Positions 13,997 through 47,709 of a stretch of 64,000 nucleotides of DNA are shown here, piece after piece (the stretch's first letter is position 1; each line of letters begins with the position of its first letter). Origin of the DNA: Closterium sp. NIES-65 (lineage: Eukaryota; Streptophyta; Zygnematophyceae; Desmidiales; Closteriaceae); NCBI GenBank assembly GCA_948144175.1, contig CANXME010002094.1, positions 427,137 to 491,136 of the forward strand, written 5' to 3'. Made by a program: the position numbers and the translations under genes. Below the pieces are notes generated by a model, which ran no database searches, was not told the origin of the DNA, and saw nothing but the letters and a program-made list of their open reading frames with translations.

Positions 13997-15161
13997 ATGG
14001 CGGGACAGACGGAGCCGAAGCAGACGCCGGAGGACGTCAAGATGGACGTCTTCGAGGACGACGACGAGTTCGAGGAGTTCGAAAATGAAGGTGCGTCTTA
14101 CGGGCGAACGAGTTTATAGATCACGTCTCGCGATTCGGTTCTGCGGTAAAGATCCTTCCTATCCAGATAGTTCTGGCCGCGTACTATGACGCTGATTGGT
14201 GTGAGTTAGGACCAACCATATTCACGAAAAGCGGTGAGACGTCTTGATTTCACGCGAGAGTGTTTCAGTCAACCGTTGCCTGTAGATATGATTTTCAGTT
14301 TTCTCTTCACAATTGGAAACGCTGCGTTCGTAGAATAATATTGTTCCTCCCAGGACACTATAGTCCGGTTGCGACGTCTGTGTTCCGTGTGCCTCCGGAC
14401 ACCCTTATCGTTGATGACTCCGAATGTCCCGCGTGACCTCCCCATATGTCCTTCTGATGCGTGCCAGCTGGGACCTGGTGCTTCCTCGCATATGCATCCC
14501 GCGTGATATCCGTGTTCGGACGGGTGACGTGATCCCCGCTTGACCTTCTCGTGGCGCGCGGAGTCTGCTCCCCACATCCATGCTGTTCCCCACATCCATG
14601 CTGCTCCCTACATCCATGCTGTTCCCCACATCCATGCTGCTCCCCACATCCATGCTGCTCCCCACATCCATGCTGCTCCCCACATCCATGCTGCTCCCCA
14701 CATCCATGCTGCTCCCCACATCCATGCTGCGGATTGGGACGAGCGCACACGGGTCGTGGGGGTGGTGGTGCACCACCAACAATAGGACAGCTGGGATGAC
14801 GTTGCGCACTTTTACCCCTCCCGTTCCACCACCCCCTTCCCCGTTCCCCCCTTCCTCTCCCCTGCCCTCTCTCGCCCCCCACTCCTCTATGTTTCAGATT
14901 GGGATGAGGCCGCACAGGACGTGGAGGGGGTGCACCAGTGGGAGGACGAATGGGGATGACTCTGCATTCCTCCTCTCCTCCCTTTCCTGCATCACCCTCA
15001 CCTCTCCTTCTCCTCATTTCCCCCGCCTCCATCTCACAGACTGGGACGAGAGTGCGCAGGACGTGGAGGTGGTGCACCAGTGGGAGGACGACTGGGACGA
15101 TGATGACGTCAACGACGACTTCTCTCAGCAGCTCAGAGCCGAGCTTGAGAAGTCCACATAG
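13997..15161 (+). CDS. SEM1: SEM1/DSS1 proteasome lid subunit
   Basis: SEM1 (DSS1, Rpn15) is a small acidic, largely disordered subunit of the 19S proteasome lid; in other eukaryotes it also binds BRCA2 and the TREX-2 complex. Exon 1 is 13997-14090 (MAGQTEPKQTPEDVKMDVFE then a DDDEFEEFENE tract, donor GAAG|GTGCG). The final exon is 15040-15161, with acceptor CTCACAG and the motif DWDE...VHQWEDDWDDDDVNDDFS, then LRAELEKS and the stop TAG. The join is in phase and gives 71 residues, the usual size. Two damaged copies of the last exon precede it (about 14732 and 14898). The 18 bp repeat 14567-14731 also lies in the intron. The gene faces UBP6 tail to tail. Confidence 0.92.
14567..14731 (+). repeat. 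18 bp minisatellite in the SEM1 intron
   Basis: About nine tandem units of ctgctccccacatccatg (variants with tt and cta). It ends exactly where the first decayed copy of SEM1 exon 2 begins. Confidence 0.9.
14732..14790 (+). pseudogene. Decayed copy 1 of SEM1 exon 2
   Basis: The sequence gattgggacgagcgcac onwards, with gtggtgcacca, matches the start of the true exon (15040) with small indels. It lacks an AG acceptor (CTGCGG precedes it) and runs into a stop, so it is not usable. Confidence 0.75.
14898..14957 (+). pseudogene. Partial copy 2 of SEM1 exon 2 with intact acceptor
   Basis: The copy reads DWDEAAQDVEGVHQWEDEWG and then a TGA. A good acceptor (tatgtttcag) precedes it. It matches the true exon over about 60 bp. 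If spliced to exon 1 it would give a truncated protein of about 51 residues that lacks the C-terminal helix. Confidence 0.8.
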
Positions 15162-15825: not shown

Positions 15826-18800
15826 CTATCCAAGGCGGGCCTTGTAGAGCAGAATATATGCCATGTGCCAGTCACCTGTAGCAAGGGGGAGAGGCATGAG
15901 ATGAAGAGTGTAGATGTGGAAAAGGCTTAGCATGTAAATAGCTGCATCTGGCCACATGGTGTGTGATGCCACATGGTGTGTGATGCCACATGGTGTGTGA
16001 TGCCACATGGTGTGTGATGCCACATGGTGTGTGATGCCACATGGTGTGTGATGCCACATGGCAGAAACTAGCAGCGCAGCTACTGAGTGTGATAAGAACG
16101 ATGATTTGTGACTGTATACGTGATTATGAGGCATATGACTACAAGGCACGTGACTATAACAAGGCATGCAACAACCCCACTGCTCACCTCCGCCTGCGAG
16201 GTTGACGATCTCCTCCTCATTGCACATGATTGATTGTGACTATACCGTGCGTGACACAACCGGACACGTGACCACAAGGCACGTGGCAGGCACACTGCTC
16301 ACCTCCCCCTGCGAGGTTGATGATCTCCTCCTCGTTGCGCATGATGGGCTGCTCGTCATCAAACTCGATCCACTTGCCTGCAGGGGAGAGAAGGACGAGG
16401 AGGGTTAGGAAAGGGAAGAAAGGGGTTTGACCTTGAGGGTACAGGGCATGATTGGCTGCTTGTCATCGAACTCGATTCACTTGCCTGAAAGCAAGCAGAA
16501 GGGAGCGAAGGAGGGGGATAAGGAGAGAGGGTGGGAGAGAGTTGAAGGGTGGGAGAGAGTTGAAGGGTAGGGGACACAAGTGCCTGCCGTGCACACGGAG
16601 GGCGACGGAGGTTGGCATGCAGTGTGGTGGGGAATGACACAAGGTACAAGGTACAAGCAACGTATATGTGAGAATTTCAAGGGAGTTACTGACAGCATGA
16701 GTGAGTGCTTGGGATGAAAGGGACTGGGCAGGAAATTCTTAGCGTTGAAACATGTCCCAACAGGACAATGCATGGATATGATCGGGCAGCGTAAATCATT
16801 GGTGTATGATGCGGTGAGCCATGGAAGAATAAAATATGGGATGGGGTGGGATGGGATGAGACCGGACAGAGTGACGAAACATGCGGCAACTTTGGACAGG
16901 TTGGAAACACACTGTTCATGCCACATACCACTCTCCTTCTTCAGCCATTCATGCCACATATCGCACTGTACCACACTGTTCATGCCACATACCACTCTCC
17001 TGCTTAACCCATGCCACATAATGCCCTGAGTCCGCGCTCCTGCCCTTGTGTGTCAGCACTGCCGTCAGGTCAAACAGCCCTGTGGCTGGACGGGTGGGGT
17101 GGGAGGGGGTCGTTATTGGGAAGGAGGAGGGGGAGGGGAAGGAGAGCGGTGAGTGGGACGGGAGGGTCACGTAGGCCCCGCAGTGCGCATTGCTGGCCTT
17201 GTGTGACCGCACAGCTGAACAGCCCTTTGGATGGGTGGACCGGTAAGGAGCGGGGGAGGTAGGAAGCAGCACAGATGAATGGAATTGAGAGGATCACACA
17301 CTTGCCCAAAACCAAAGCCGCACTCCTGCCGTTGTGGCTCAGCACTGCCGCCAGGTTGAACAGCCCCGTGGGTGCGTTGAGGGATGGGCGGGATGGCGGG
17401 GGGGAGGGGGAGGAGGAGGAGGAGGGGGAGGAGGAGGAGGAGGAGGAGGAGGAGGAGGAGGAGGAGGAGGAGGAGGAGGAGGAGGAGGAGGAGGAGGAGG
17501 AGGAGGAGGAGGAGGAGGAATCTGAGAGAAGATAAGGGAATGTATGGCGGCTGCATAGGTTTCAAAGGATCTGCGAGTAAAGGGCAACAAAAACGCCTTG
17601 AGATCACAAAAACGCCTTGAGATCACACAAACGCCTTGAGATCACACAAACGCCTTGAGATCACACAAACGCCTTGAGATCACACAAACGCCTTGAGATC
17701 ACACAAACGCCTTGAGATCACAAAAACGCCTTGAGATCACAGCACTAGCAAGAACGGAACAGATGGATGCGCCACATTCAGATAGAAGGGAATTTATTTT
17801 AAAAAAATCAAGAATATTATTTTAATCATATAGCACGTATGGGAAAAAGGACCCCTTTCTCCCATGGCCCCACAGGAAGCAGTGGGCTGCACAGCAGGAG
17901 ACCGGGCAAGGTGGCAGCTAATTGTTACCTAATGGAGACAGATGCCCATGGTCATGGCCCCTACCTTCTCCGCTCTCCTTGCTGTCTGCGGCTGTGGCGG
18001 CAGTCGCATCAGAAGCCTGCATGGTGAAGGTGGGTCCGAGGAGAGAGCGCAGTGCAGAGGGAGGTGGGATGATTCAGGGAAGGAATGAATGTAGGGTGGG
18101 ATGATTCAGGGAAGGAATGAATGTAGGGTGGGATGAGTCAGAAAAGAAAAGAGACAAGCTTTCTCTCACACAAACCGCCTTGCTGGTTCCTTCAGTGGCC
18201 ACCCCTTCAGTCATCCTTTGCACCTCTGCTTGTCCCCTATCTCTTGCAGCTCTTCTTCATAGCCCTCCCGTCCTTCCTATCCCACAATCCCCTCTGTAAC
18301 ACTACCCCAATCCCACAAGTCACACTCCATTGTCCCTCACCTTTCCAAGTACAGCCTTCATCCCTCCATCCCTCCTCACATGCCCAGATGGACACTTCAT
18401 CCCTCCCTCCTCCTCACCTGTGCGGTCGCAGTCCCATCCACATCCATTGCTGCTCCTCCCCCTCCCTCCTCCTTCCCCTCTCCTGCCTCCCCCGCTCCGC
18501 CCTTCGCCTCTGCTCCCTGTGCCGCCCCCCCTGTCTTCCCCTCCGCACTCCCACTCCCCTCCGCTGCCCCTCCCAGCCCCTTAGCCGCACTGCCCCCTTC
18601 CACCTCCATCTTCTCCCCCTCCTTCCCCCCCGCGTCCGCCTCCCCCTCCTTGCCCTTCCCCTTGCCCTCAACCAATCCCGCCTTGATGTCATCCGCCAGG
18701 CGCAGGCGCTGGGGGGGGAGGGGGGACGGGGGGCGGGAGAGGGAGGAGGGTGAGGGGGAAAGGGAAGGAGGAGTGTGATTAGAACCACCAAGCAGACGTC

Positions 18801-21800
18801 GCAAGCACCCCAGCATGGGGGAGCGGGGTATCACAACAAGCGCCTCCCCCTCCACCAGCCCTGCCTTTATGTCATCCGCCAGGCGCAGGCGCTGGGGAGA
18901 GGGGGGAAGGGGGAAGAGTGCGGGGAGGGGGGGAGAGGGGGAAAAAGAGGGGGGAAGAGAGGGAAGGATGGGATGAGGGTGGCGGAGCGGAGGGGATTGA
19001 GTGGATGATGCAAGGAAGATACAACGTGTCCCTGGTAGGCACTGAAATGGAGAGTGGATGGCCCGATTCAGGTTTTGAGTCGAGTGGATGGCCCGATTCA
19101 GGTTTTGAGTCGAGTGGATGGCCCGATTCAGGTTTTGAGTCGAGTGGATGGCCCGATTCAGGTTTTGAGTCGAGTGGATGGCCCGATTCAGGTTTTGAGT
19201 CGAGTGGATGGCCCGATTCAGGTTTTGAGTCGAGTGGATGGCCCGATTCAGGTTAAAATATCTTGTGGTGAGCTCTTTGGATAGAAAAAAACCCATGGGA
19301 AGAGAGACACCAGGCAGCTCGGAGCAAAGCTAGCCATGTGTAATTCAACAGCGAGACATGACCCTTTGTGCAAGAAACATGTTGTGTTGTTGTTGCACTG
19401 GCAACAACACATCATCGGCAGCAACAAACAAAGTGACGCTTGTTGAGTCGATTCGAAGACTGCCTCAACAATGTGACATGCAGATTCGAAGACCGCCTCA
19501 ACAATGTGACATGCAGATTCGAAGACCGCCTCAACAATGTGACATGCAGATTCGAAGACCGCCTCAACAATGTGACATGCAGATTCGAAGACCGCCTCAA
19601 CAATGTGACATGCAGATTCGAAGACCGCCTCAACAATGTGACATGCAGATTCGAAGACCGCCTCAACAATGTGACGTGCAGATTCGAAGACCGCCTCAAC
19701 AATGTGACATGCAGATTCGAAGACCGCCTCAACAATGTGACGTGCAGATTCGAAGACCGCCTCAACAATGTGACATGCAGATTCGAAGACCGCCTCAACA
19801 ATGTGACATGCAGATTCGAAGACCGCCTCAACAATGTGACATGCAGATTCGAAGACCGCCTCACATGCAGATTCGAAGACCGCCTCAACAATGTGACGTG
19901 CAGATTCGAAGACCGCCTCAACAATGTGACATGCAGATTCGAAGACCGCCTCAACAATGTGACGTGCAGATTCGAAGACCACCTCAACAATGTGACATGC
20001 AGATTCGAAGACCGCCTCAACAATGTGACATGCAGATTCGAAGACCGCCTCAACAATGTGACATGCAGATTCGAAGACCGCCTCAACAATGTGACATGCA
20101 GATTCGAAGACCGCCTCAACAATGTGACGTGCAGATTCGAAGACCGCCTCAACAATGTGACATGCAGATTCGAAGACCGCCTCAACAATGTGACGTGCAG
20201 ATTCGAAGACCGCCTCAACAATGTGACATGCAGATTCGAAGACCGCCTCAACAATGTGACATGCAGATTCGAAGACCGCCTCAACAATGTGACATGCAGA
20301 TTCGAAGACCGCCTCAACAATGTGACATGCAGATTCGAAGACCGCCTCAACAATGTGACATGCAGATTCGAAGACCGCCTCAACAATGTGACATGCAGAT
20401 TCGAAGACCGCCTCAACAATGTGACATGCAGATTCGAAGACCGCCTCAACAATGTGACATGCAGATTCGAAGACCGCCTCAACAATGTGACATGCAGATT
20501 CGAAGACCGCCTCAACAATGTGACATGCAGATTTCGTTTGAATTCTAGAAAGATATCGGCGCGGCTTGTAGCACTCACTTTCCTGGGCCCATCCAGCTTC
20601 GCTCTGAGCTCTGGCGTGCAGAAGTCATAGACGTCCAACACGAGGGGGTACGTCACCCTCTGTAACAACAGAGAGGAGGGGAGGGGGAAGAGGAAAAGGA
20701 AAGGAGGGGCAGAGAGGGCGGAAGAGGCAGGGAGGAGGAGCAGAGAGGGCGGAAGAGGCAGGGAGGAGGAGCAGAGAGGGCGGAAGAGGCAGGGAGGAGG
20801 AGCAGAGAGGGCGGAAGAGGCAGGGAGGAGGAGCAGAGAGGGCGGAAGAGGCAGGGAGGAGGAGCAGAGAGGGGGCCGCGTGCAGCTTGGCTCTGATCTC
20901 GGGTGTGCAGGATTCACAGACGTCTGGTTTTGAGGCCGGGCATGCATGTCACACACGAACAACACATGGGGCAAGGCATACATGGGGGTTAAGGCACAGT
21001 AAGGTCTGGTATGGTGGGGCATGGTAAGGTACGGTAAGGTACGGTAAGGAACGGTAAGGTACGGTAAGGAACGGTAAGGAACGGTAAGGTACGGTAAGGA
21101 ACGGTAAGGCATGGCAAGGTACTGACCCGGAGGATCTTGGCCTTCTGCTGCGACTCGCGCTTCCAGAAGAAACGCACAAACTGCACCGTGAGGTAGCTGG
21201 GGGGAGGGGCGGGAGGGGGGAGCAGTGGGAGAGGCCAAGAAAGGCTTGTTTGAATGCGTGGCATGCGCAGACACTCTCGCTTCCAGGAGAAACGCACGGA
21301 CTGCACTGTGTGGTAACTGGTGGGGGCAGTGCCACGGTGAGGAAAGGGGGGAGTAGGGAGCGAGGAATCACTCTTGAGAATTCCAAAAAAAATAATTCCC
21401 GAAATTGATTTCAACTTTGAGAGGGGGGGAGGAGTGAGGGATGCGGGAGAGGGAAAGAAGAGAGTTAGGCAAACAGAGAGTTGGGCAAACAGAGAGGGCT
21501 GGGAAGGCAAAGCAGCATTGGCACGCCGTGGACGCACAAGACGACAGGCTTCAAGCACACACAGTACAGCGAGCACAGAATGACTGATGTTGGAAGAAGA
21601 GGCAGGTGAGGGTTTACAGCAGTTGGGGACGGGACGAAGGCATGAGCATGGAATCCAAACACGCAGACAGACACCCACTGAGGGATGCGGGCACCAAGGG
21701 ACTCTCCTTGAGACGCCTCACAAATCACTAACTGCGGAAGACGGGCGATGAGAGACTCACTGGGGAAGACGGGCGATGAGAGACTCCTTTGCAAAGACAG

Positions 21801-24800
21801 CGGAGCGGCCGAGCGATGCCGATACCTTCTCGAGCTCCGTCCTTAGGCCCTGGCGGGAGGGGAGGGGTGGGGTGCGGAGTGCATGGAGGTGGGTGAACTG
21901 ACATACACGCTTGACGCTGCTGCGTAATGTGGCACTTGGGCACAAACACCATCTCTTAAGCACAAACACCATCTCTTGGGCACAAACACCATCTCTTGGG
22001 CACAAACACCATCTCTTGGGCACAAACACCATCTCTTGGGCACAAACACCATCTCTTGGGCACAAACACCATCTCTTGGGCACAAACACCATCTCTTGGG
22101 CATAAACACCATCTCTTGGGCATTAACACCATCTCTTGGGCACAAACACCATCTCTTGGGCACAAACACCATCTCTTGGGCACAAACACCATCTCTTGGG
22201 CACAAACACCATCTCTTGGGCACAAACACCATCTCTTGGGCACAAACACCATCTCTTGGGCACAAACACCATCTCTTGGGCACAAACACCATCTCTTGGG
22301 CACAAACACCATCTCTTGGGCACAAACACCATCTCTTGGGCATAAACACCATCTCTTGGGCACAAACACCATCTCTTGGGCATAAACACCATCTCTTGGG
22401 CACAAACACCATCTCTTGGGCACAAACACCATCTCTTGGGCACAAACACCATCACTTGGGCACAAACACCATCTCTTGGGCACAAACACCATCTCTTGGG
22501 CACAAACACCATCTCTTGGGCACAAACACCATCTCTTGGGCATAAACACCATCTCTTGGGCACAAACACCATCTCTTGGGCACAAACACCATCTCTTGGG
22601 CACAAACACCATCTCTTGGGCACAAACACCATCTCTTGGGCACAAACACCATCTCTTGGGCACAAACACCATCTCTTGGGCACGAACACCATCTCTTGGG
22701 CACAAACACCATCTCTCCGCTCCTTGCTCTTTGTGAGAGAAAGGTGAAGTGAAGGGGAAAGGCACTCACACTCTTGATGCCTTCATTCATGCAGCAAGAT
22801 GAGCGAAGAAGGAGGAATGCGAGGGTGACCCTCCCTCTTTATGCCTTGACTCACGCTCTTGATGCCTTGACTCCCGCTCTTGATGCCTTCATGCAACAAG
22901 CTGACGTCGCAGCTGATATGGTGCAGAGGAGGTGGGGTGAAGAGGGGGAGTGCGAGGGTAACTCACCCTCTTGATGCCTTCATGCAACAGGTTAACGTCG
23001 CTGCTGATGTGGCATTTCAGCATGAACGCTGTCTCCTTCTCCTCGCTCTCCTCCCCGTTGCCCTCCGCGCCCTCCCCTCCCTCCGCACACCGCACCCTGT
23101 GTGCCACACAGGAAGAGGCCGTGAGCAGGGGGAAGCATGGAGCAGAGGAAGTGGGGGTGAGCACGTGGCATGCCATGCAGGGAGTGGTGAAGACGTGGAG
23201 AGGGGGGGACATGGATGAGCACGTGAGAGCATGATGTGACCCTCACCAGCAGCACATGGAGGGGTGAGCACGAGGCAGCACAGGGAGGGGTGAGCACGAG
23301 GCAGCATCCACAGACAGAGACACAAGGACGGTTGCCACATGAGGAGCACGCATGCGTATGCAGTGATCCCTCAGCAACAGCCGAACAGCACTCACCACAG
23401 CTTTGGCAGGAGGTAAGGCATGGGATGATGCATGAGATGGAAGGCATGGGATGATGCATGAGATGGAAGGCATGGGATGATGCATGAGATGGAAGGCATG
23501 GGATGATGCATGAGATGGAAGGCATGGGATGATGCATGAGATGGAAGGCATGGGATGATGCATGAGATGGAAGGTATGGGATGATGCATGAGATGGAAGG
23601 AGGCACGTGAACTCACTTGCTGACTAGTTCAATCCCGAATATGTTGTCCACCTCAGCTTGCGAGCTGACGTGGCAGGGGGATGACAAGGCAGAGACAAAG
23701 CACAGTCAGGCAGGGTCAGTAACGAAAGGAAAAGGAAGGGATATGGCAGCGGGGGCAAGGAGGAAAGGGGTTTCTTCAGGAACAATAAGAATGATAAAAT
23801 AACCGCAGGAGCAGCAAGCAAGCAAACTGCAGAAGAGGTCATCATGAAGAGCTGGGTGGAAAGGGGCAGAGAGCGGTGCAAGGGAGCAGAGGCCAGTGGA
23901 AGGGAGCAGAGTGCGGTCGAAGGGAGCAGAGATCGGTAGAAGGCAGCAGGGGGAGGGGAAGCAAGAAAAGGGAGGCGGAGGACAGAAGAGGGAGGCGGGA
24001 GGGAGGGGCAGCACGCACGGCTGCCTGACGCTGCGGAGGCGTTGGGCGAGCGAGAAGAGCAGCTGCGTCCAACACTCCTCCGCATCCTGTAGGTGATGAG
24101 GAAGGGAAGGGGAGTAACAGAGGAAGAAGGGAAGGGGAGTAACAGAGGAGAAAGGGATACGATTTCTGAGTCGGATCAGAAAGAGGCGCTGAGAGGAGGT
24201 GGGGTGACGCAGAAGAAAGGGTTTTAGGGAGTCACGGAGGCGAAAGGTGGCGCTTAAGTCGACTCAGAAGTCGTGGTGGTGGAAGAGCGAGCAATGCAGA
24301 TGCCTCCTGCATGTGATGAGGAGCAGGAGGTAACGGGGAGTTACGGGGAGTTACGGGGAGTGATGTGTTGGTGACGCAGAGTTACGGGTGTGAGTGATGT
24401 GATGGTGATGGAGGACAAAGGAGATGAAGGTGAACAGCGCACGCATGAGTTGAGTTAAGGTCAAGCCACAAGGAGAAGAGGTGGAGCGGAAAAGGGCAGG
24501 AGGAATGGCATGTGCAATGAAAAGGTGAAGGAAGACGCTGAGGCTTTCAGCCACTGGTTGTGCATATCATGCCGGTACATGAATGTGCCATGCTCTCAAG
24601 TCACCTCATCTGATGCATGTACGCGCCATGCTCCCATGTGACCTCACCTGCTGCATGTATGCACCATGCTCTCCCTGCTGGGCGAACTGCGGGAATCTCT
24701 GCCTTAGCAGCTGCGTGCCACAGGGGGGGGGAGACAGGGTGAGGCGACAAAGGACGGGGATAGGGTGAGCAAAGAGATGGCTCTAGATTATGGGGAAGAA

Positions 24801-28268: not shown

Positions 28269-28271
28269 CTG

Positions 28272-30166: not shown

Positions 30167-30169
30167 TAA

Positions 30170-31155: not shown

Positions 31156-31194
31156 TAACCCCTCTCCTTGCCAAACCTCATTTCTTACCGAGCC

Positions 31195-37900: not shown

Positions 37901-38699
37901 GTCGATGGGTTCGAGGTGGTAGGGGTGGGTGGGCTCCAGATTTCGGAGATAGTTATTTGGTTACGAGCGTTTCGACAGGACTGAAAATAGGCGTTTTGAC
38001 TTGCCTTGCTTGTTCCAGGCGCGCAGTTTCAAGGAGCGGTGATGTTGTGGGGGGCGGGAGAGGGTGAGTGAGGGAAGTGGTCAAGGAGGGTGGGGGAATG
38101 CCTGCAGAAAGATGGGAGGAAAAGGGGAGTGAAAAAACGACTATTTGGCGACAACTCCCGGCGACGTCGCCCATCTTTATGCGATGAGGGCCACCTGCAT
38201 GCGACGTCGCCCACCTGTATGCGACGAAGCCGCCGTAGCTGAGCCCGACGAGCGCGCACTCGGCAATCTCGAGGCGGTCTAGCAGGCGCAACATGACGCC
38301 AGCCTGAAACATTTCCGACCGTTGATCGCTGCGGCTGCGCGATCCGCCGAAGAAGACGAGATCTGGCAGAACCACGTCGAAGTCGCGCGAAAATGCCGCG
38401 ACCTGATTGGTCCACTGCCAGATCGCCGACGCGCCGAAGCCGTGAAGCATTAGGAGAGGCGGCTTGCGACGGCTCCCTGTGGCATTGCGCTGCAGCGACT
38501 GCGACTGCGACAGCGATTGCGAAAGCGACTGCGATCGCGAAAGGGATTCGGCGTAGTGTCGCGGGGCCCAACATGCGACACTGGTTTCGTCGTCCACCTG
38601 CACGTCGAGCAGTCGCAGGCCGTGTCGCATGTACCACAGGCGAAGCAGTCGCTCCTGAATGTGCACGACGTTCGGCAGGCGAAGAAACGTCGCAGCCAT
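34938..38699 (-). CDS. Alpha/beta hydrolase, plant MAG-lipase-like type
   Basis: Five in-phase exons (38699-38215, 36958-36733, 36427-36146, 35787-35720, 35079-34938) give 400 residues. The oxyanion region LLMLHGFGASAIWQW lies near residues 82-96, VVLPDLVFFGGS near 109-120, and the nucleophile elbow GLSYGG places Ser at about 154. The acid is in LLVWGSRDSIFPL and the His in LEGASHALNIHRP. This is the complete triad of an esterase/lipase-like hydrolase, most like plant proteins with the motif DLVFFGGS. The substrate cannot be told from sequence. An SQ-rich stretch (residues 52-69) looks like a repeat expansion. The signature partial exon copies lie in every intron except one. Confidence 0.92.
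35385..35590 (+). repeat. 16 bp minisatellite
   Basis: About 12-13 imperfect units of gcatggcattacatgt in the last hydrolase intron. Confidence 0.85.
35590..35719 (-). pseudogene. Three donor-side copies of hydrolase exon 4 end
   Basis: The exon end gcatgcacag|gtggggtagtg recurs three more times downstream, each keeping CACAG|GT, in units of about 33-50 bp. Confidence 0.85.
36545..36665 (-). pseudogene. Donor-side copies of hydrolase exon 2 end
   Basis: One copy reads LLLPDEPQGVQRLVHLAYAH, and an overlapping one AHDAPALPAWVLRSTH followed by a GTAGGC donor. Both closely match exon 2 (36733-36958). Confidence 0.88.
37030..37720 (-). pseudogene. Five acceptor-side copies of hydrolase exon 2 start
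   Basis: Variants of CAG|aatggcctgcctggagccgg lie at about 37110, 37250, 37390, 37570 and 37710 (for example RMACLESGRVQRL, RLACLEPHRVE, RMACLEPGTL). Spacing is about 140-180 bp. Only the copy at 36958 continues into a full exon in the right phase. Confidence 0.87.
38155..38214 (-). pseudogene. Two donor-side copies of hydrolase exon 1 end
   Basis: A 20 bp block cgcatacag|gtgggcgacgt follows the true donor twice more as cgcatgcag|gtggccctcat and cgcataaag|atgggcgacgt. Confidence 0.85.
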
Positions 38700-39217: not shown

Positions 39218-42200
39218 TCATCCACTGCACTCCATCGGCGCCAACGGACGGGCTTGACACGAAGTTACCAATGACTTGCTGGACTCTCCAGGCGCTGAGC
39301 ACGGAGCCAGGCCCCACTTGCATCCCAACACCGATTTGCTCATCAGCCCACCTTCTGAACACTGCTTCTCTTCATGCGATGCATCTGAGGCATCCACATG
39401 CATACCTGTACTGCAGAGATCGCCCTGCATTGCCGTCTTATCTTTTCCTCGCTTGTCTTCATGTGATGCGCATTGGGCGTCCACATGCATACCCGAACTG
39501 CACAAATCATCCTGTGCTTCCATCTTGCCTTCCCCTTGCTTCTCTCCATGGGACTGACATGCAGTGTCCGCATGCATGCCCCCCCCATTGCAACATCTGC
39601 CCTCCTCTCCCATCTCATCTTCGCCCTCCTCCATATCAGTACAGCCTGTGATGAATGCTGCTTCACGTGGTGCTTCCGGTGCGTCTGACAATGTGGCGGC
39701 TGTTTCAGGTGGTGTTGGCACTGCTATGAGTAGCGCCTGTGCTGCTTCAGGTTGTGATGCCTCGGGTTTCTCTGCTGCTGCTTCACGTGGTACCTCCTGT
39801 GCTTCTGACGTTGTGGCGGCTGTTTGGGGCAGTGTTGCTGTGGCTTGTGCTGCTTCGGGTGCCGCTGATACTTCTAGTTGCATCTCTCTGGTTTCAGGTA
39901 GTATAGTTGCGTCATCAGGCATCTCTGCTGCTTCAGGTAGTGCCTCTGCTGCTTCAGGTAGTGCCTCTGCTGCTTCAGGTAGTGCCTGTGCTGCTTCAGG
40001 TACCTCTGGTGCTTTAGGTACTTCTCTTCGTGGCACTGCACTGGTGGTTGAATCAACAACACATGCACTGCAGCCGGCAGCAGCAGTAGCTGCAGAATCA
40101 GTAGCTGCATCACATACAGACTCCTCTTCCCTGCGCCTCTTACGACACCCCTTAGCCATGGCTGCTGCTGCTGCTGCTACTGCTGCTGAGGTTGCTGCAG
40201 GGGTTGCTTGGAGCCGTACTGTTACTGTTGGTGATGCTGCTGTTGCCGCTGCCTCTGTTTCTCTCCTGTGATCGCCTGCAACCACAGAGGCCTGGGGATG
40301 CCACTCCCCACTCACTCTCCCGCGGAGGTGGTGGCGGGGGGGAGGAGAGGGGGGAGGCAGCGAATGGAGGGTGTGTAGGGCGATCTGTGGGGGGGACGGA
40401 GAGGAGGGGTGGCAAGGACAAGGTGAGGAGGGGCGGAAAGGCACGATGGGTTGTGAAGATGAGTGTGAATTGGTGGTGGGAGGAGGCTACATGGTGGAGA
40501 CATGCCAATGTGAGCTGCATGAGAGAACGGCACGAATGCAAGCAGTGCATGGCTTACAGAGGAGTCATCAGCAGCGGAGAGCAGGGATGCTCCATCCACA
40601 GGTGACCTGGGTGGTGCGAGGATGGTGGGTTGAGAGGATGGGAAGATGGGAGTATTTAAGGATGTGGAGGGCAGGTAAGGTATGGGCACGGAGTGGTTGG
40701 ATTGAAAAGGCAAACAACTGGCTTGTATTGACATGCATTGCAGCTCGTGCAAAAAAACCTGAGCCGCACACACCATGAAATGCACCACGTGCACCATGAC
40801 ATGCATCACGTGCACCATGACATGCATCACGTGCACCATGACATGCATGACATGCACCACATACACCATGCTCTATAACAATACATATCCATGTACCTCA
40901 GGCTCTGCATCATCCCCATCACCCCCATCACCCCCATCACCCCCATCACCCCATCACCCCCATCACCCCATCTCCTCATTCCTCCCCCATCATCCCCACC
41001 ACCCATCGCCCCCATCACCCATCATCCCCATCACCCATCATCCTCATCACCCCATCACCCCCATCACCCCATCACCCCTCCATCAGGCACCCAGTGGCCA
41101 CCCACCAGCGGAGGGCGGTGACCTCCCCCTGGTGCGCCTGAAAGGTGACAGATGGCATTGTGTCATTGGTCGACAGCTGGATGGTGAGGGGAGGGATGGT
41201 GGCATGCCAAGTATGAAGAGAGGGTGAGGGATAAGGGCGAGACAAAGGCAGAGGGAGGACAGAGGAAGCACAAGTGTTGTGAAAGAGGTGAAAAGGGCTG
41301 TCATGGTAAGGAAGCCCTGAGGAGTAGGAAAGCAGGGCTAAACAACAATAACAATGATAATAACAATAGCAATAACAATGAAAAGCTGACAGTGCGGAAT
41401 ATTTGAGACGTCCAAAGGTTCATAAGTAGCCTGGCATCACCTGCCACACATGCAGCACCTGCCACACATGCAGCACCTGCCACACATGCATAACCTGACA
41501 CACATGCATCACCTGCCACACATGCATCACCTGCCACACATGCATCACCTGTCACACATGCATCACCTGCCACACATGCATCACCTGCCACACATGCATC
41601 ACCTGCCACACATGCATAACCTGACACACATGCATCACCTGCCACACATGCATCACCTGCAACACATGCATCACCTGCCACACATGCATCACCTGCCACA
41701 CATGCATCACCTGCCACACATGCATCACCTGCCACACATGCAGCACCTGCCACACATGCATCACCTGCCACACATGCATCACCTGCCACACATGCATCAC
41801 CTGCCACACATGCATCACCTGCCACACATGCATAACCTGACACACATGCATCACCTGCCACACATGCATCACCTGCCACACATGCATCACCTGCCACACA
41901 TGCATCACCTGCCACACATGCATCACCTGCCACACATGCATCACCTGCCACACATGCATCACCTGCCACACATGCATCACCTGCCACACATGCATCACCT
42001 GCCGCACATGCATCACCTGCCACACATGCATCACCTGCCACACGTTGACGCTGCCATCACTGCCACCGCATGCCACCCGGCTGCCGTCACTACTGATGCT
42101 CGCCTGGTGGGGCCAAGGGAGGAGAGCGGAACATGTGCATGCTGCTCGGCAAGCGTGCACAATATGTGTGCATTCATCACTTCGTGCTTGGTGTTCATGT

Positions 42201-45200
42201 GTGCGCATGTGAGATGTGTGCACTTGCATGTGTCTGTCAATCTGTTTATTGAATGCACAAGTACGAATGTGTATGCGTGTGTGCATGATTACCCTAGGTA
42301 AGCTTGGCTGCGATATGCATTTATGTGCATGCAAACATGTGCAGGTGTCATCAATCACACCTGCAGACAACCACACCTCCTTGCATGCACGCAATCAAGC
42401 CTTGACTGTGAGGTTGGTACTCGGCGGGGCGGGGTTCCCTCACCTCCACAAAGAATGAGTCGATCTGAGCGCCCTGCAGGGCGTGAGAGACACGTGGCAG
42501 CGGTGCAGTCATGTCCACCATATACACTCTGAGGGATGGGAAGGGGGGGAGGGGCGGTGGTGTAACATGGGAGAGATGGGAGGACTTAAGAGGTGCCTCA
42601 AAGGGCAGCGGTGCAGTCATGTCCACCACATACACTCTGAGGGATGGGCGGGATGGTGAAATGATTCTTGAGCGATGGGAGGGATGAGAGGACTTTCGTG
42701 GCGCCTTAAAGGGCAGCGCTGCTGTCATGTCCACCACGTACACTCTGACAGAGGGGAGCGATGGGGAGGATGATGAGAAATGATAGATAAGAGTCATGTC
42801 TGCAGAAAGCGGTGATGGGGGTTGTAGAAAGGGGTTGTGAGCGGTGGAAGGAGCTTGGCGCTAAGACGAGTGGTGGTGGGAGCAGGAGGGAGAGAGGCAT
42901 GGGCTGACTGTATAGACACTCCCTCCACTGCAACCACCAACACCACCATAATCACCACCAACACCACCATCCGCACTTGCTGTTGGTGCAGCAGGCAGTG
43001 AGGCGCGAGCTGACTTTGCATACACTCCCTTAACTGGAAGGAACACCACAACCACCATAACCAGCAAGATGGCTGCCACAACGACCGGCACCAGTACCAG
43101 CATGCACACCTGGCGTTGGTGCACGAGGCAGTGAGGCGCGCGCCATAGGCGTCCTGAGAGAGGCTCGTGATGCCCCTCACCCGCCATGGGGTGCCCGTGT
43201 GTGGCGGCTGGAGGGGTGAGGAAGGGGTTGGGAGGGGTGGGATGGGGTGGAATGGGAGTGGGATGGGGGTGAAGCGAGGGGGACTAATGGGGAGGGGAAT
43301 TAAAGCCATCTTGAGAGAGGCTGGTGATGCCTCGCACGCGCCATGGGTGCCTGTATGAGGGGGATGGAGGGATGGGGAGGGGCCGAGATGGGGGTGGGAT
43401 GGGGGTGAAGAGAGAGGGAGTGATGGGGAGGGGATTAAAGGCATGTTGAGAGAGGCTGGTGATGCCTCGCATGCGCCATGGGGTGCCCGTGTGTGATGGT
43501 TGGAAGGGACGGGGAGGAGGCGAGATGGTGGGTTGGAAAGAGAGGGGACGATGGCATTGGGGGAGTGGAAGGGGGTGGGGGTTTGGAGGGGTGAAAGGAG
43601 GGGGAGGAGAGTGAGGGTGCGGGGTGGTGGGGGTTGGGGGGGTGCTGACTAGTACCGGATTCCCAACCCCCCCAGTAGCACGCGGTGCAGGTGGACAATC
43701 CAGTGACGAGGAAGTATCAGGGCTGTCAGTGGGGCACATGGGCTGTCAGTGGAGCACATGGGCTGTCAGTGGGGCACATGGGCGTGAGGAGGCGACTTCA
43801 AGGCAGGTAGAGCCAGTGGGCAAGGGACGAGGGACGAGGGACGAGGGAGGAGGGGCAACAAGCAACGGGCGAAACGGGCAACAGGCGAGTGATGAGGGTG
43901 CAATGATGAGGGAGTAGTGATGAGGGTGTAGTGACTCCACGGTGCAAGCGCGGCGTGGGCAATGAACACGAAGCTACGGGTCCGACTCCACTGTGTCACT
44001 CGCTTGTTGCTTACCTGGGCAGGGGCTGGCGTGGCTGTGGGCGAGTGAGGGGCGGTGCTGGGGCACAAGGTGGTGAGCGGCTCTTTCAAAGCCCGCGTGT
44101 CCCAAAACTTGACGGCTCTGCTCCCATGCACAGCACACACAGCACACATGGAGACAGCACACAGTGACAAGAGCTCATTTCTTTGTCGCCTCAAGAATAT
44201 CCATGGCCCCACGAACAGCACAACACACACAGAGCGACAGCACGCAAGGACAAGGAAGGAAGCAGCACCGAGAAGCATGGATCCAATTTTTTACTCCCAG
44301 TAGACACCAACAATCTCGGGTGCATCCAACAGCTGCATGCTGAGCAACAGAGCTGCATGCTGAGCAACAGAGCTGCATGCTGAGCAACAGAGCTGCACCA
44401 TAGCGCAAGTGACTTTGGATGGATTCTCTCATCCGTGGCTAGCTGCTCATATTGCGGCTCGTGCCCTCTTCTGCTCCTACCAATCCTTGCTGCCCTGCTC
44501 ACTGACCATTGCAAACATTCCTCCTCTCTCTATCCTCCCTCCCTTGCTGCTCAAGACCTCAAGTCCTGCTCTTGTCATCATTCTCTCACCCAACCCATAA
44601 AACTCATCCATCCATCCCATTCCATCACATCCCACCCATCCATCCTATCCACCCATCAGAGATGCCAGTAGTGAAGAGCATGCGGGCGTCGTTGAGAGAG
44701 AAAAGCACATTCAGGCGGCACAAAGACACAGCCAGGCGGCACACTGGCACAGCACAGCTCGGCCAACCCATCTCGACCCACTCATCGGAGGTGCCAGTAG
44801 TGAAGAGCATGCGGGCGTCGAGGGAGAAGAGCACAGCGAGGCGGCAAAAAGACACAGCGAAGCACCACACAGCACCCCTACCCACCCATCCCATCCACCC
44901 ACCCGTCAGAGGCGCCAGCAGTGAAGGGCATGCAGGCGTTGAGGGAGAAGAGCACAGCGAGGCAGCACACTGGCACAGCACCGCACCACACAGAGCACCA
45001 CCCATCGAAACCATCCCACTCATCCCATCCCAACCAATGGCACCCACCCATCAGAGGCGCCAGCAGTGAAGAGCATGCGGGCATCAAGGGAGAAGAGCAC
45101 AGCGGTGACGGAGCACCCCACCACGGGGCGGATTCGCACCCGCTGCTGCTGAGGCCTGCCCTTGCGCTGCTGCGGCTGAGCATGCAGGGAGAGGGTGGGC

Positions 45201-47709
45201 GGAGAGCAGGGAGGGAAGCAGGATGAAAGGACAAAAAGAGGGGAAAGGCAAACAGAACAGGGGAGGGGAAAATAGTGGGAGATAGAGGGAATTTGGTGGA
45301 GGGATAGGAGGGAACTTATGGGGATAGATTAAGGGAACGGGGGGAAGAGCGGAAGATGAGGAGGGCGGTGAGATAGGGGGAAAGAGTGAAGAGAGATGGG
45401 AGAAGGTAGGAGGAGGGGGATAGAAGAGGTGGAGGGGGCGGCGGGGAGAGTAGGGACGTACAGGGGGCAGCAGCAGCGGGTGGCGCCATGAGGGGCGGGT
45501 GGTTTCGGGGAGATGTGCCCGCGGTATGGCTCTGAGGGGTGGTAGGCGGGGCAGAGGGATGATGAGCGATAAGGGGGGGTTGACACGGAAAAGAAAACAA
45601 GAACAAAGCATGTGTCACGAGCTGCGATTCCTTTGCAAGGGCCACAGGGCACGTGGCACGAGGCTCGAGGCACAACGGAAGGCAGAATAGCAGTGTGTGA
45701 GTTAGCGAGGAGGCGAGGAGCGAGCAATCACCCGGTAGGCTGGGAGGAGGTGCGAAGGTCCCACAGTAGAACAGCACCGTCTCGTGCCGCTGTTGCCAGA
45801 CAGTCTGGTGAGGGAAGCGAAGGGAAAGCGAGGTGGGGCGAGGGGAGGGGAAGTAGTGTACTCGACATGATGGCGCATGGACTGGTAATGTGTTGCTTGC
45901 AAGATGCAATGCGGGGAGCTCAACGATGGTTGTACGATGGAAGGTGAAGTGGCCGACACTTGAAAGACCATGAGAAAATTCTCATGGTCAAAACTCGAAT
46001 AACGTTTTGAGAAAGCGATCTGAATACAATGGAAATTCTAAGCATCTGTGCTTCTGGAGATTGTACGTATCAAAAATATATAAATGTATACATTTTTTTG
46101 CTTTGAGATTGCACTCCATCTAAACGTATCAACCCCGACTTTTTTAATCCATAACGGGTAACGGGCGTGTGCCCAAGTCTCGCGCAGTGGTGGAAAACTG
46201 GAAGAGATAAAACGGTTGGATTCGGTCGTTTTTGGGCGAGAGAAGTGTCCCCCACACGCCATTATCACACATACTTCCTAGAGGCCTATCCCAGATGACA
46301 CATGCCTGGGTTGGCGGGATGCGCAGCAGCGCATTTGACGGTGGCGCCATGGCCTCGCAGCACGGCCAGTCGCGTCGAACCGCTCGGCGCCACCTGCCAG
46401 CACGACGCCGTGCGATCGCCGGAACACGCGACGAGGCGACGACCGTCCTGACGAAGGAAAATGGAGATGGGTTAAGACGCAAAAGGCGAATACGATGGGC
46501 AAAGGTGACGACAGGTTGGGCGCGAATTGCCGCAATAGCTCGGTGCCACCTGCGACGAGGACGCCGTGCGGTCGACGGCCATTTTGATGAAATAAACGAG
46601 GCAACGATGCGAGCGGAAACGGGTAACGATGCAACAGACAAAGAACAAAAGGAAAGGAAACGACGTGATTGCACGAGAGAAGCGCGATCCGCTCGGCGCC
46701 ACCTGCCAGCGCGATCGCAGAAGTCGTGAGGAGGTGACGGCCGCCCTAGCGTGAAGGCCGGGAAACGAACAAGAAGACGACGCCGAGCGGAAGGCGCGAC
46801 GAGGGACGAAGGTTCAGCAGCGACAGTCGGGAAGGAGAGGCGAGGTGGAGAGTGACAAGCGCGAGTGCGCGCGGCACGAGAGGGGTAAGGGCGACGACGG
46901 ATGCGCGGCGCAGGAAGGCAGAGGCTATGCGGCGAAGGAAGACAGAGTTCTCATTTTCGGAACTCTTAACAGAGGCTGGGAGCGGAAGACAAAAGATTCT
47001 CGCCGAACGCTGACACAAAATACTCTTGAACCATCCACAACCTTCTGCTGATCCACGCTCTTTCCGGTGCCATACCTTGAGCCAGCACACGTCGAACACG
47101 GAGTTGCTGTGTGCATGCCACGTGGTCGATGGTCGCGTCGTGTACGCGTTACAGTCGGACCCGCTATCAATTTGCGCGCACATGGAAAGCGACGGCAGCG
47201 TGTTGACGACATTCACGAAACCGAGCTCGTCGCCCACCGCCGCTAAATGAGCCTCGTCCGAGCGCTGTCGGTGGGGGGAGAAACGAAGTTAATACCGAAA
47301 AATGGACCGACTGTTACACGGTAACCAGTTCTCTCTGGGACCGACAAAGGCACGAGCTTCGAGTGCGTCATCGCATGGCCAGATGCGTCATCGCATGTGT
47401 GGGACCAATTGACGCCCGGAGTCAATCATTCATGGCTCACCATCGCAGAGTGTGAATCGTCGCATTCTCACCACTGACGACTGTCAGCATACCGGCTCAC
47501 CTGACCGAAAGCCGCAAATTACGGGCTCACCTGGCCGAGAGCCGTCAATCACGGGCTCACCTGGCCGAAAGCCGTCAATCACGGGCTCACCTCGGAGAAC
47601 GCTACCGCCAGCGGGATGGCCGCCGTGTGGCACTGCCACGCGCGCTGCGACGCGAGGGGCGCCACCAGCGCCCGGCGCGTGAGGTGCTGCTGTACTGCGC
47701 GGGCCGTGC
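39218..47709 (-). CDS. DTL: CDT2/DTL-type WD40 substrate receptor of CUL4-DDB1 (5' end incomplete)
   Basis: CDT2 recruits CDT1 and other PCNA-bound proteins to the CUL4-DDB1 ubiquitin ligase during S phase. Exons: 47709-47591, 47264-47076, 46447-46394, [one not found], 45804-45732, 45531-45462, 45175-45048, 44117-44015, 43207-43110, 42528-42444, 42103-42035, 41137-41106, 40606-40558, 40291-39218. Key stretches are AVGDELGFVNVVNT and WHAHSNSVFDVCWLK, ACSGDRTASCWQ, then ATAARDGAVLLWDLR and GASDGAVKFWDTR (two WDxR boxes that bind DDB1), GITSLSQDAYGARLTASC, and SAADDSS. Phases agree at every listed join from 45804 onward and between the first three exons. A phase jump between 46394 and 45804 shows a small blade exon is missing. 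The C-terminal exon codes about 357 disordered residues with repeats. I see no PIP box. The first exon is not identified. Confidence 0.88.
39360..39640 (-). repeat. In-frame ~90 bp repeat in the CDT2 tail
   Basis: Three tandem coding units read CCNGGGMHADTACQSHGEK, then DLCSSGMHVDAQCASHEDK, then DLCSTGMHVDASDASHEEK. Each keeps Cys, GMH, Asp and SH at the same spacing. Confidence 0.85.
40790..40870 (+). repeat. 20 bp minisatellite
   Basis: About four units of caccatgacatgcatcacgt. Confidence 0.88.
40905..41085 (+). repeat. CATCACCCC repeat
   Basis: Short irregular units of catcaccccc and catcatcccc in a CDT2 intron. Confidence 0.88.
41446..42052 (-). repeat. 18 bp minisatellite made of a CDT2 exon end and splice donor
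   Basis: About 34 units of catgtgtggcaggtgatg on the CDT2 strand. The exon 42103-42035 ends aacgtgtggcag|gtgatg, and every unit repeats gtgtggcag|gtgatg. The frame is kept (VMHVWQ per unit) and stays open for about 26 units, until a TGTGACAG variant near 41552. Confidence 0.95.
42580..42750 (-). pseudogene. Two acceptor-side copies of a CDT2 exon
   Basis: RVYVVDMTAALPFKAP (about 42690-42745) and RVYVVDMTAPLPFEAP (about 42580-42640) precede the intact exon RVYMVDMTAPLPRVSHALQG (42444-42528). Both carry TCAG acceptors. The three copies are about 110 bp apart. Confidence 0.88.
42840..43030 (-). pseudogene. Two donor-side copies of a CDT2 exon end
   Basis: The copy at 42970-43020 reads SRLTACCTNSK with a GT donor, matching ARLTASCTNAR of the exon at 43110. 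A more decayed copy lies at 42845-42910. Confidence 0.78.
43300..43505 (-). pseudogene. Two acceptor-side copies of the CDT2 exon at 43110
   Basis: RGITSLSQDGFN (43300-43370) and HGHPMAHARHHQPLSTC in a shifted frame (43437-43505; RGITSLSQHAFN in frame) match the exon start PWRVRGITSLSQDAYG. Confidence 0.87.
44336..44397 (+). repeat. 20 bp minisatellite
   Basis: Three units of agctgcatgctgagcaacag. Confidence 0.93.
44660..44965 (-). pseudogene. Three donor-side copies of a CDT2 WD-blade exon
   Basis: AVLFSLNACMPFTAGASDG, AVLFSLDARMLFTTGTSDE and NVLFSLNDARMLFTTGISDG follow the intact exon 45175-45048 (TAVLFSLDARMLFTAGASDG), spaced about 80-130 bp. The first and third keep a GG|GTGG donor. Confidence 0.9.
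46541..46725 (-). pseudogene. Two upstream partial copies of the CDT2 exon at 46394
   Basis: VDRTASSSQ|VAPS (about 46541-46590) and a shorter block with GCTGGCAG|GTGGCGCC (about 46685-46725) resemble the exon end GDRTASCWQ|VAPS. Unlike the other cases, donor-bearing copies lie upstream here. Confidence 0.65.
47495..47590 (-). pseudogene. Three donor-side copies after a CDT2 exon
   Basis: After the true donor (TCCGAG|GTGAGCCCG at 47591) a 30 bp block cggctttcggccag|gtgagc recurs three times. Each has a consensus-like CAG|GTGAGC donor that is stronger than the true one. Confidence 0.88.

What the first reader, a model, noticed from the sequence alone, without database searches (positions are those of the whole stretch)
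13997..47709. Splice-site-spanning tandem duplications ('exon-fringe' copies) in all five spliced genes
In SEM1, UBP6, the Root_cap gene, the alpha/beta hydrolase and CDT2, pieces of exon plus the adjoining acceptor or donor occur in 2-6 tandem decaying copies. I count about 20 cases. With one exception (46394), acceptor-side pieces lie upstream and donor-side pieces downstream of the intact exon, exactly what direct tandem duplication across a splice site predicts and what retrocopies or exon shuffling would not. It implies a very active 20-300 bp tandem duplication process in this genome, and a splicing machinery that must choose the right one among repeated sites. The same process probably seeds the many minisatellites.
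Basis: partly seen in the sequence, partly recalled or inferred. Interest (0 to 1): 0.9.

Follow-up and report, generated by a model that had tools for sequence, protein, structure and literature searches.

The report
Introns built from tandem exon-edge copies
In this green alga (a Closterium), the edges of exons with their splice sites have been copied again and again into the neighbouring introns by short tandem duplications, many about 145 letters long (roughly one nucleosome), so introns grow by local copying and splicing must ignore many near-copies of each true site.

Summary
In five gene models (35 introns, 70 junctions), the 45-letter exon end has a copy in the correct-side intron at 24 of 70 junctions; controls give 2 of 60 (wrong side) and 2 of 70 (reverse complement). 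In 15 exon loci of CCT chaperonin genes elsewhere, 18 of 30 flanks carry copies; all 9 upstream copies are exon heads and all 9 downstream copies exon tails. A second locus copy (66 substitutions in 34,661 aligned bases) carries the copies too, so assembly error is unlikely.

Splice junctions are not hot spots: random intron 45-mers have copies about as often (68 of 234), and tandem arrays are depleted at junctions. Exon edges are the conserved, hence recognisable, part of intron-wide tandem duplication. 54% of intron bases lie in local self-similarity; arrays cover 36% of introns and 2% of adjacent intergenic DNA.

New here: unit lengths peak near 145 bp (bootstrap 134-154) in 11 of 12 testable stretches; a stricter count gives 130. 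Nucleosome-length duplication is a suggested, unproven cause. Nearest precedent found: one potato gene (PMC4974935).

The parts
13997..15161 (+). SEM1/DSS1-like gene: exons 13997-14090, 15040-15161
   Evidence: model; family name recalled, not searched
14854..14959 (+). acceptor-side copy of SEM1 exon 2, AG kept, 142 bp upstream
   Evidence: 84/105 identical
14714..14804 (+). older acceptor-side copy of SEM1 exon 2, AG now GG
   Evidence: 60/85 identical
15826..28270 (-). UBP6 gene, 17 exons modelled (5' exon missing)
   Evidence: homologs (86% over 85% of the query to Closterium NIES-68 P0001)
27977..28064 (-). donor-side copy of UBP6 exon 1, GT kept
   Evidence: 67/88
26264..26384 (-). acceptor-side copy of UBP6 exon 3, AG kept
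   Evidence: 95/112
26391..27289 (-). further acceptor-side pieces of UBP6 exon 3 split by a 27-bp array (26427-27202)
25901..25999 (-). donor-side copy of UBP6 exon 3, GT kept
   Evidence: 85/98
25764..25838 (-). second donor-side copy of UBP6 exon 3, GT kept
   Evidence: 59/75
24587..24671 (-). 38-bp tandem copy spanning UBP6 exon 6 donor
22764..22921 (-). four donor-side copies of UBP6 exon 9 (GG, GT, GA, GT)
21727..21798 (-). 28-bp tandem copies spanning UBP6 exon 10 donor
21273..21324 (-). acceptor-side copy of UBP6 exon 11, AG kept
   Evidence: 44/52
20873..20924 (-). piece of UBP6 exon 12 upstream of it (no junction in the copy)
   Evidence: 42/51
19450..20533 (.). 33-bp array, 33 copies in the window, about one unit in the C222 copy
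18843..18951 (-). acceptor-side copy of UBP6 exon 13, AG kept
   Evidence: 87/107
18278..18278 (.). site where the C222 copy carries a 45-copy 31-bp array and the window about one unit
17318..17433 (-). acceptor-side copy of UBP6 exon 15, AG now AC
   Evidence: 89/108
17175..17234 (-). second acceptor-side copy of UBP6 exon 15, AG now AT
   Evidence: 47/59
16908..16967 (-). donor-side copy of UBP6 exon 15, GT kept, 60 bp
   Evidence: 50/56
16446..16531 (-). acceptor-side copy of UBP6 exon 16, AG kept
   Evidence: 69/82
16136..16230 (-). donor-side copy of UBP6 exon 16, GT kept
   Evidence: 79/91
31198..34249 (-). Root_cap-related gene: exons 34249-34167, 33628-33407, 31996-31198
   Evidence: 88% to NIES-53 P0153
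33658..33995 (-). 81-bp array of exon 2 acceptor copies, AG kept; an open frame runs through it
32697..33354 (-). six donor-side copies of Root_cap exon 2
32141..32271 (-). acceptor-side copy of Root_cap exon 3, AG kept
   Evidence: 104/129
34938..38699 (-). alpha/beta hydrolase gene, 5 exons
   Evidence: P0151 of Yama58-4
37073..37781 (-). five acceptor-side copies of hydrolase exon 2 (AG kept in four)
36550..36696 (-). donor-side copy of hydrolase exon 2 (exon part only)
   Evidence: 110/125
38161..38231 (-). 20-bp tandem copies spanning hydrolase exon 1 donor
35598..35668 (-). donor-side copy of hydrolase exon 4, GT kept (p = 0.01, not among the 24)
39218..47709 (-). CDT2/denticleless gene, 13 exons modelled (5' end open; frame of exons 5-6 unresolved)
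46538..46747 (-). two acceptor-side copies of CDT2 exon 3
44602..44959 (-). three donor-side copies of CDT2 exon 6, GT kept
43304..43554 (-). two acceptor-side copies of CDT2 exon 8, AG lost (AT, AA)
42956..43010 (-). donor-side copy of CDT2 exon 8, GT kept
42604..42769 (-). two acceptor-side copies of CDT2 exon 9, AG kept
41434..42043 (-). 18-bp array (34 copies) starting at CDT2 exon 10 donor; units repeat the donor; the exon's frame stays open, mostly as VMHVWQ, to 41554
47494..47592 (-). 30-bp array (3.3 copies) starting at CDT2 exon 1 donor

Best explanation
Introns of this Closterium grow by direct tandem duplication of local DNA. There are two size classes: minisatellite units of roughly 15-40 bp, and units of roughly 110-180 bp with a mode near 145 bp. 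When a unit straddles a splice site, one copy becomes intron. The gene survives only if splicing keeps to the outermost site, so acceptor-side pieces end up upstream and donor-side pieces downstream of the intact exon. The intact exon is held by selection, so its decayed copies stay recognisable longer than intron-intron copies (inferred). SHOWN here: the copies, their direction, their largely tandem arrangement, their presence in a second locus copy and in unrelated genes, the size mode, the excess in introns over adjacent intergenic DNA, and drift-like loss of the copied splice dinucleotides. INFERRED: the unit is set by a nucleosome-length interval between two breaks or nicks on opposite strands (or by Okazaki-fragment length), followed by fill-in and end joining. 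I give this about 0.35. That splicing relies on exon context rather than on the local site alone is also inferred.
For: Window: 24/70 junctions, 2/60 wrong side, 2/70 reverse complement. CCT genes: 18/30 flanks, 0/30 reverse complement, 9/9 heads upstream and 9/9 tails downstream, judged by the midpoint of the copied part. Uniform in introns: 68/234 interior 45-mers against 6/234 reverse complement; exon interior 2/61. Abutting copies: block/offset median 0.71 (n 205) against 0.11 for shuffled. Size mode: 437 events, 54 in 140-154 bp against 14 in 80-94 and 3 in 200-214. A second method, self-BLAST, gives 267 pairs, mode 145, bootstrap over stretches 134-154, 11 of 12 stretches. The mode is present in exon-touching and other events. 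Units are not shared between loci (6 hits of 22-31 nt, 3 pairs counted both ways, among 169 segments). Intron bias: arrays cover 35.7% of introns against 1.9% of intergenic DNA in the same 34 kb; 2 wholly intergenic events against 16.9 expected; 0.12-0.22 events/kb of the larger class in five TE-rich or random stretches. Not assembly: second copy; a NIES-54 protein model runs colinearly across window 46765-46289, which includes intron DNA with CDT2 exon-3 copies. Neutral decay of copied sites: AG/GT kept in 38 of 47 against 33.8 expected.
Against: No new ~145-bp unit separates the two locus copies; 17 of 21 indels of 5 bp or more lie in window arrays, and an 18th is the C222 array, so current activity of the larger class is unproven. 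If only the smallest offset per cluster is counted, the mode falls to 130 bp (bootstrap 5-95%: 122-143), and non-exon events have a median of 134, so 147 exactly is not established. The 20 most similar pairs (95% or more identical) have a block/offset median of only 0.33. Arrays as such cover 12-20% of TE-rich and random stretches, so they are not confined to introns. Gene stretches differ widely: the cullin gene in L049 has 4 events in 6 kb and L038 none. Inverted kinesin-exon pairs (three places, two of them a duplicated pair) show that not every local copy is direct. No nucleosome map, RNA-seq or breakpoint microhomology was available.
Confidence: 0.78

Rival explanations
1. Ordinary replication slippage and unequal exchange alone: the copies are old minisatellite-like repeats with no special unit length, and the ~145-bp mode is sampling noise or a detection artefact.
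For: Short-period arrays are abundant and change copy number fast; slippage plausibly explains that class. The mode shifts to 130 with a stricter count.
Against: Two algorithms give the same mode, in 11 of 12 stretches. Offsets of 60-110 and 180-215 bp lay within the searched range but were rarer. A second hump lies at about twice the unit.
Confidence: 0.25
2. The copies are functional: alternative or poison exons, or decoy splice sites that regulate these genes.
For: Many copies keep AG or GT (38 of 47). Arrays at CDT2 exon 10 and Root_cap exon 2 are in frame and open, the first as far as 41554.
Against: Site retention equals drift (38 against 33.8 expected). Most copies are truncated. In one search, use of a copied site would break the frame or add a stop in 27 of 38 cases; this is approximate, since CDT2 frames are partly uncertain and four CDT2 exon 10 units were scored as frame-breaking although 18-bp units keep the frame. 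The same density is seen in plain intron.
Confidence: 0.07
3. RNA-mediated copying or mobile introner-like elements put exon pieces into introns.
For: Introners favour nucleosome linkers (PMC9860276, passages), and the excess is in transcribed regions.
Against: Copies hold unspliced intron plus exon DNA, lie next to their source, and do not recur at the other loci compared. Dispersed insertion does not predict heads upstream and tails downstream.
Confidence: 0.03
4. Assembly artefact.
For: Tandem repeats are where long-read assemblies can err.
Against: Two contigs at 0.19% divergence share the copies (47 of 62 letter for letter, against 31 of 40 exons). CCT genes on paired contigs show the same partial copies. 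The NIES-54 model agrees. If the strain is NIES-65, its read N50 was 30 kb (PMC10407611).
Confidence: 0.01
5. Splice junctions are mutational hot spots, for example through co-transcriptional splicing.
For: 24 of 70 junctions carry copies.
Against: Interior intron 45-mers are hit about as often (68/234), and arrays are depleted at junctions (10 against 24.1).
Confidence: 0.03

Closest known systems
Tandem duplication crossing an intron-exon boundary in the potato RdRp gene (PMC4974935; abstract and introduction read)
   Same: A direct duplication spanning an acceptor, with splicing signals inherited from the parental junction.
   Different: One event that created a new intron; here many events per gene, on donor and acceptor sides, that lengthen an existing intron and leave the protein unchanged.
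Rogers-type intron gain by duplication of an AGGT-containing exon segment, with Drosophila cases (PMC2891723, passages read; model described in PMC4974935)
   Same: Tandem duplication inside genes coupled to splice-site choice.
   Different: That model needs a duplicated proto-splice site inside an exon and yields a new intron; here the source is an existing junction and no new intron is seen.
Small tandem duplications from fill-in of complementary 3' overhangs plus end joining (PMC8355091; abstract, introduction, discussion read)
   Same: Homology-independent direct duplication of short local segments; a plausible molecular route.
   Different: Its introduction speaks of insertions under 100 bp and its discussion of induced overhangs as small as 43 bp; here the mode is near 145 bp and the events pile up in introns.
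Tandem exon duplication / mutually exclusive exons (PMC6071210, search listing only)
   Same: Neighbouring copies of exon sequence.
   Different: Those are whole, usable exons (recalled); here the copies are truncated exon edges.
Introners (PMC9860276, passages read)
   Same: Intron growth or gain in algae with a nucleosome link.
   Different: Introners are dispersed mobile families; these units are local and locus-specific.
Genome-wide copy number variation in the Closterium psl. complex (PMC10407611, abstract and sections 7 and 19 read, term search)
   Same: Same group of strains; would explain the second locus copy on C222.
   Different: It treats whole-gene duplication; my term search found 0 occurrences of minisatellite, and no discussion of copies inside introns in the 12 of 15 passages shown.

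Membership tests
Tandem genomic duplication across a splice junction (potato RdRp type) | Copy contains contiguous intron and exon DNA running through the junction | tested here: met
   47 of 54 copies include the splice dinucleotide
Tandem genomic duplication across a splice junction (potato RdRp type) | Copies are direct and abut their source | tested here: met
   median block/offset 0.71 against 0.11 (but 0.33 in the 20 most similar pairs); direction 18/18
Tandem genomic duplication across a splice junction (potato RdRp type) | A new intron is created | tested here: not met
   The models keep the parental exon order, with proteins matching relatives; no extra exon needed. No cDNA of this strain was available
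Small tandem duplication by break fill-in and end joining | Sequence-independent breakpoints with little homology | not tested
   Copies too diverged to place breakpoints; no recent ~145-bp birth found
Small tandem duplication by break fill-in and end joining | Dependence on CST/Pol alpha or end joining | not testable with these tools
   Needs mutants
Nucleosome-length duplication (proposed here) | Unit length mode near nucleosomal DNA length (147 bp, recalled) | tested here: inconclusive
   mode 145, 134-154; 130 (122-143) with a stricter count
Nucleosome-length duplication (proposed here) | Breakpoints in linker DNA | not testable with these tools
   No nucleosome map
Introner elements | Dispersed family of similar insertions | tested here: not met
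   6 short cross-locus hits among 169 segments from the loci held, not the whole genome
Functional tandem exons | Whole exon with both usable sites | tested here: not met
   truncated copies
Minisatellite / VNTR | Variable copy number of a short tandem unit | tested here: met
   for the short-period class only

The most novel reading that the evidence does not exclude
Closterium genes have a mutational process that duplicates one nucleosome length of DNA (about 145 bp) in tandem inside transcribed gene bodies. It is the main source of intron growth and leaves multiple intact splice sites that the spliceosome ignores, so splice-site choice there must rest on exon context.
Probability: 0.3. Interest if true: 0.87.

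Novelty: new variant of a known kind. Interest (0 to 1): 0.68.

Why it matters
How introns lengthen without transposons is poorly known; here the growth step can be read directly because conserved exon edges act as fossils of each duplication. The genome offers many natural tests of splice-site choice, since similar donors or acceptors lie in series beside the true one. A unit near nucleosome length, if confirmed genome-wide, would link chromatin to a class of duplications. Practically, the copies may mislead gene prediction: the annotated Closterium protein P0122 contains translated intron DNA with such pieces, and P0151 fuses the hydrolase with CDT2.

Tried and rejected
Junction hot spot: disfavoured. 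Selection against copied splice sites: none detectable. Retrocopies, introners, whole-exon duplication: see rivals. Assembly error: disfavoured by the second locus copy. Frame preservation as a rule: one search scores 11 of 38 usable copied sites as keeping the frame without a stop; offsets come from gapped alignments, so four CDT2 exon 10 units are scored as frame-breaking although their true period of 18 keeps the frame. An automatic spliced alignment over-split exons and crashed at output; models were then set from splice motifs (crashed; completed). The CDT2 frame across exons 5 and 6 stayed unresolved (31 stops in the single frame printed). One search analysed the CCT loci without turning minus-strand loci; one search replaced it. 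A first offset scan had a faulty null because query and target overlapped; one search replaced it, and its histogram is not used. Searches for prior reports (I saw capped listings, and read parts of five papers) showed no description of junction-spanning tandem copies at this density or of nucleosome-length tandem duplication in introns; the library lacks most subscription journals.

Row selection. One search used 15 of 30 CCT loci (near-duplicates dropped). One search used the window genes plus 15 of the 56 loci then held and kept 437 of 477 events. One search compared 12 of 16 stretches (those with at least 4 hits). In one search, 23 of 85 rows have offset 0 (self-matches) and were ignored; of the other 62, 8 have fewer than 8 exon letters.

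Full report
WHERE. The window is contig C1796:427137-491136 of an assembly of 874,075,685 bases in 2,400 contigs. Proteins match Closterium best: the UBP6 draft is 96% identical over 75% of the query to Closterium sp. Yama58-4 and 86% over 85% to NIES-68. The assembly size fits NIES-65 of the C. peracerosum-strigosum-littorale complex (876 Mb, long reads assembled with Canu; PMC10407611). The strain is my inference.

GENE MODELS. Exons were placed with relatives (P0001, P0003, P0006, P0121, P0151, P0153 and others) and AG/GT sites. UBP6, Root_cap, hydrolase and SEM1 read without internal stops. CDT2 reads in WD40 blocks, but the frame across exons 5 and 6 is unresolved, and its 5' end and that of UBP6 are missing. 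The names SEM1 and Root_cap (for PF06830) are recalled. CDT2 exon 3 uses a GC donor.

THE COPIES. Of 70 junctions, 24 have a copy of the 45-nt exon end in the adjacent intron on the expected side at p = 1/201. The wrong side gives 2 of 60, both short UBP6 exons that also have an upstream copy on the expected side; the reverse complement gives 2 of 70. Of 54 listed copies with at least 8 exon letters, 47 include the splice dinucleotide; identity to the source ranges from 0.71 to 0.95 with median 0.85. Examples: hydrolase exon 2 has five acceptor copies upstream; CDT2 exon 6 has three donor copies downstream; Root_cap exon 2 sits between an 81-bp array of acceptor copies and six donor copies.

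NOT A JUNCTION EFFECT. Random 45-mers inside introns find copies in flanking intron at 68 of 234 (6 of 234 reverse complement). Exon interiors at least 70 nt from a junction find copies at 2 of 61. Tandem arrays contain 10 of 70 junctions against 24.1 expected for random intron positions. The exon fringes are therefore the exon-overlapping tail of an intron-wide process, apparently thinned at junctions, probably by selection. 54.4% of the 22,420 intron bases lie in arrays or other local self-similarity.

BEYOND THE WINDOW. A Pfam search with the CCT family shows partial copies directly: on C43 model positions 136-214 lie upstream of 135-247, on C1626 62-102 lie downstream of 13-102, and on C1052 271-322 lie upstream of 271-356. 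In 15 non-redundant CCT exon loci, 18 of 30 flanks carry a copy and 0 of 30 in reverse complement. By midpoint, all 9 upstream copies are exon heads and all 9 downstream copies are exon tails; 11 of 15 exons are affected, 7 on both sides. Cullin shows the same (305-352 upstream of 305-466), as does kinesin (273-305 upstream of 273-327 on C1673). Against a purely direct process, kinesin exon pairs lie inverted at C511, C1725 and C1052; C511 and C1725 look like a duplicated pair. The cullin gene in L049 has 4 events in 6 kb and CCT locus L038 none.

SECOND LOCUS COPY. Contig C222 carries a collinear copy with 66 substitutions in 34,661 aligned bases and 29 indels; of 21 indels of 5 bp or more, 17 lie in window arrays and one more is a C222 array. 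The 33-bp array has 33 units in the window and about one on C222; a 31-bp array has 45 units on C222 and about one in the window. Exon-fringe copies are shared (47 of 62 listed copies letter for letter; 31 of 40 exons letter for letter). Array amplification or collapse is thus fast, while the exon-fringe copies predate this duplication. A NIES-54 protein model runs colinearly at 69% identity through window 46765-46289, which includes CDT2 intron DNA with exon-3 copies, so some are older than the strains.

UNIT LENGTH. With short-period arrays masked, copy-to-copy offsets in the window genes and 15 CCT/cullin stretches give 437 events: 37, 54 and 29 in 125-139, 140-154 and 155-169 bp, against 14 in 80-94 and 3 in 200-214, with a second hump at 215-305. 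Self-BLAST, a second method on the same stretches, gives 267 pairs, mode 145, bootstrap over stretches 134-154; in 11 of 12 stretches with enough pairs 120-169 bp beats both neighbouring ranges. A stricter count of the smallest offset per cluster lowers the mode to 130. The mode is present in events that touch known exons (median 149 within 60-200 bp) and in those that do not (134; outside the window many exons are unknown), so it is probably not imposed by splicing. Units at the loci compared are unrelated. Copies tend to abut: median block/offset 0.71 against 0.11, though 0.33 among the 20 most similar pairs.

WHERE IN THE GENOME. Within the same 34 kb, arrays cover 35.7% of intron, 7.5% of exon and 1.9% of intergenic bases; two events are wholly intergenic against 16.9 expected at the intron rate, P = 7.5e-6. 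The intergenic total is only 5,483 bases and includes an element of about 1 kb with inverted ends (seen by eye). Five TE-rich or random stretches, two of them random 8-kb pieces, have 0.12-0.22 events/kb of the larger class but 12-20% array cover. Young transposon DNA has had less time to accumulate events.

SPLICING. Copied sites keep AG or GT in 38 of 47 cases against 33.8 expected if they drift like the rest of the copy. There is no sign that copies must be disarmed. By the use of an intact copied site would break the frame or add a stop in 27 of 38 cases; four CDT2 exon 10 units are among these although 18-bp units keep the frame, and other CDT2 frames are partly uncertain. The machinery therefore probably reads exon context rather than the site alone; this is inference. 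Two arrays are frame-neutral: 81-bp units at the Root_cap exon 2 acceptor (open throughout) and 18-bp units at the CDT2 exon 10 donor (open from the exon to 41554, about 27 of 34 units). Alternative use there would only add 27 or 6 residues per unit, and could be real.

MECHANISM. Small tandem duplications are known to form when complementary 3' overhangs between opposed breaks are filled in and joined (PMC8355091). If breaks fall preferentially in linkers on either side of one nucleosome, the unit would be about 145 bp. Okazaki-fragment-sized mis-processing would give a similar length (recalled). Neither was tested. I rate the nucleosome-length link at about 0.35 and the tandem-duplication account itself far higher.

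NOVELTY. A single junction-crossing tandem duplication is on record in potato (PMC4974935), and exon-segment duplication as a source of introns in Drosophila (PMC2891723, passages). The capped listings of ten searches of the held library showed no report of this density, of the intron bias or of the size mode. I therefore call it a new variant of a known kind.

Noticed in passing
G000:C222 about 626-676 kb against window 13695-63627: A collinear second copy of most of the region, 0.19% substitutions in the part aligned base by base (window 13695-50000), consistent with the published gene duplication in these strains.
   Followed up: yes
window 30168-31160: Inverted ends (GGTGCGTCAGATCC ... GGATCTGACGCACC) about 1 kb apart in the UBP6-Root_cap intergenic region: looks like a DNA transposon or MITE (read by eye).
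   Followed up: no
G000:C511:712945-713361, C1725:169179-169595, C1052:556971-557362: Kinesin-domain exons in closely spaced inverted pairs on opposite strands; C511 and C1725 look like a duplicated pair.
   Followed up: no
window 26366-26424 and 27201-27259: A 59-bp segment, 100% identical, flanks the 27-bp array inside UBP6 intron 2, as if the array arose within a duplicated fringe copy.
   Followed up: no
window 39923-40020: A 21-bp coding minisatellite (PEAAEAL-type repeats) inside the last CDT2 exon.
   Followed up: no
window 46306: CDT2 exon 3 ends at a GC donor (CAG|GCATGT).
   Followed up: partly
window 55469-55870: A perfect 199-bp tandem duplication (100% match) in the repeat-rich right flank; the flanks also match several other places on C222.
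   Followed up: no
P0122 (NIES-54), P0151 (Yama58-4): Annotated proteins that include translated intron DNA (P0122) or fuse the hydrolase with CDT2 (P0151); fringe copies may mislead gene predictors.
   Followed up: partly
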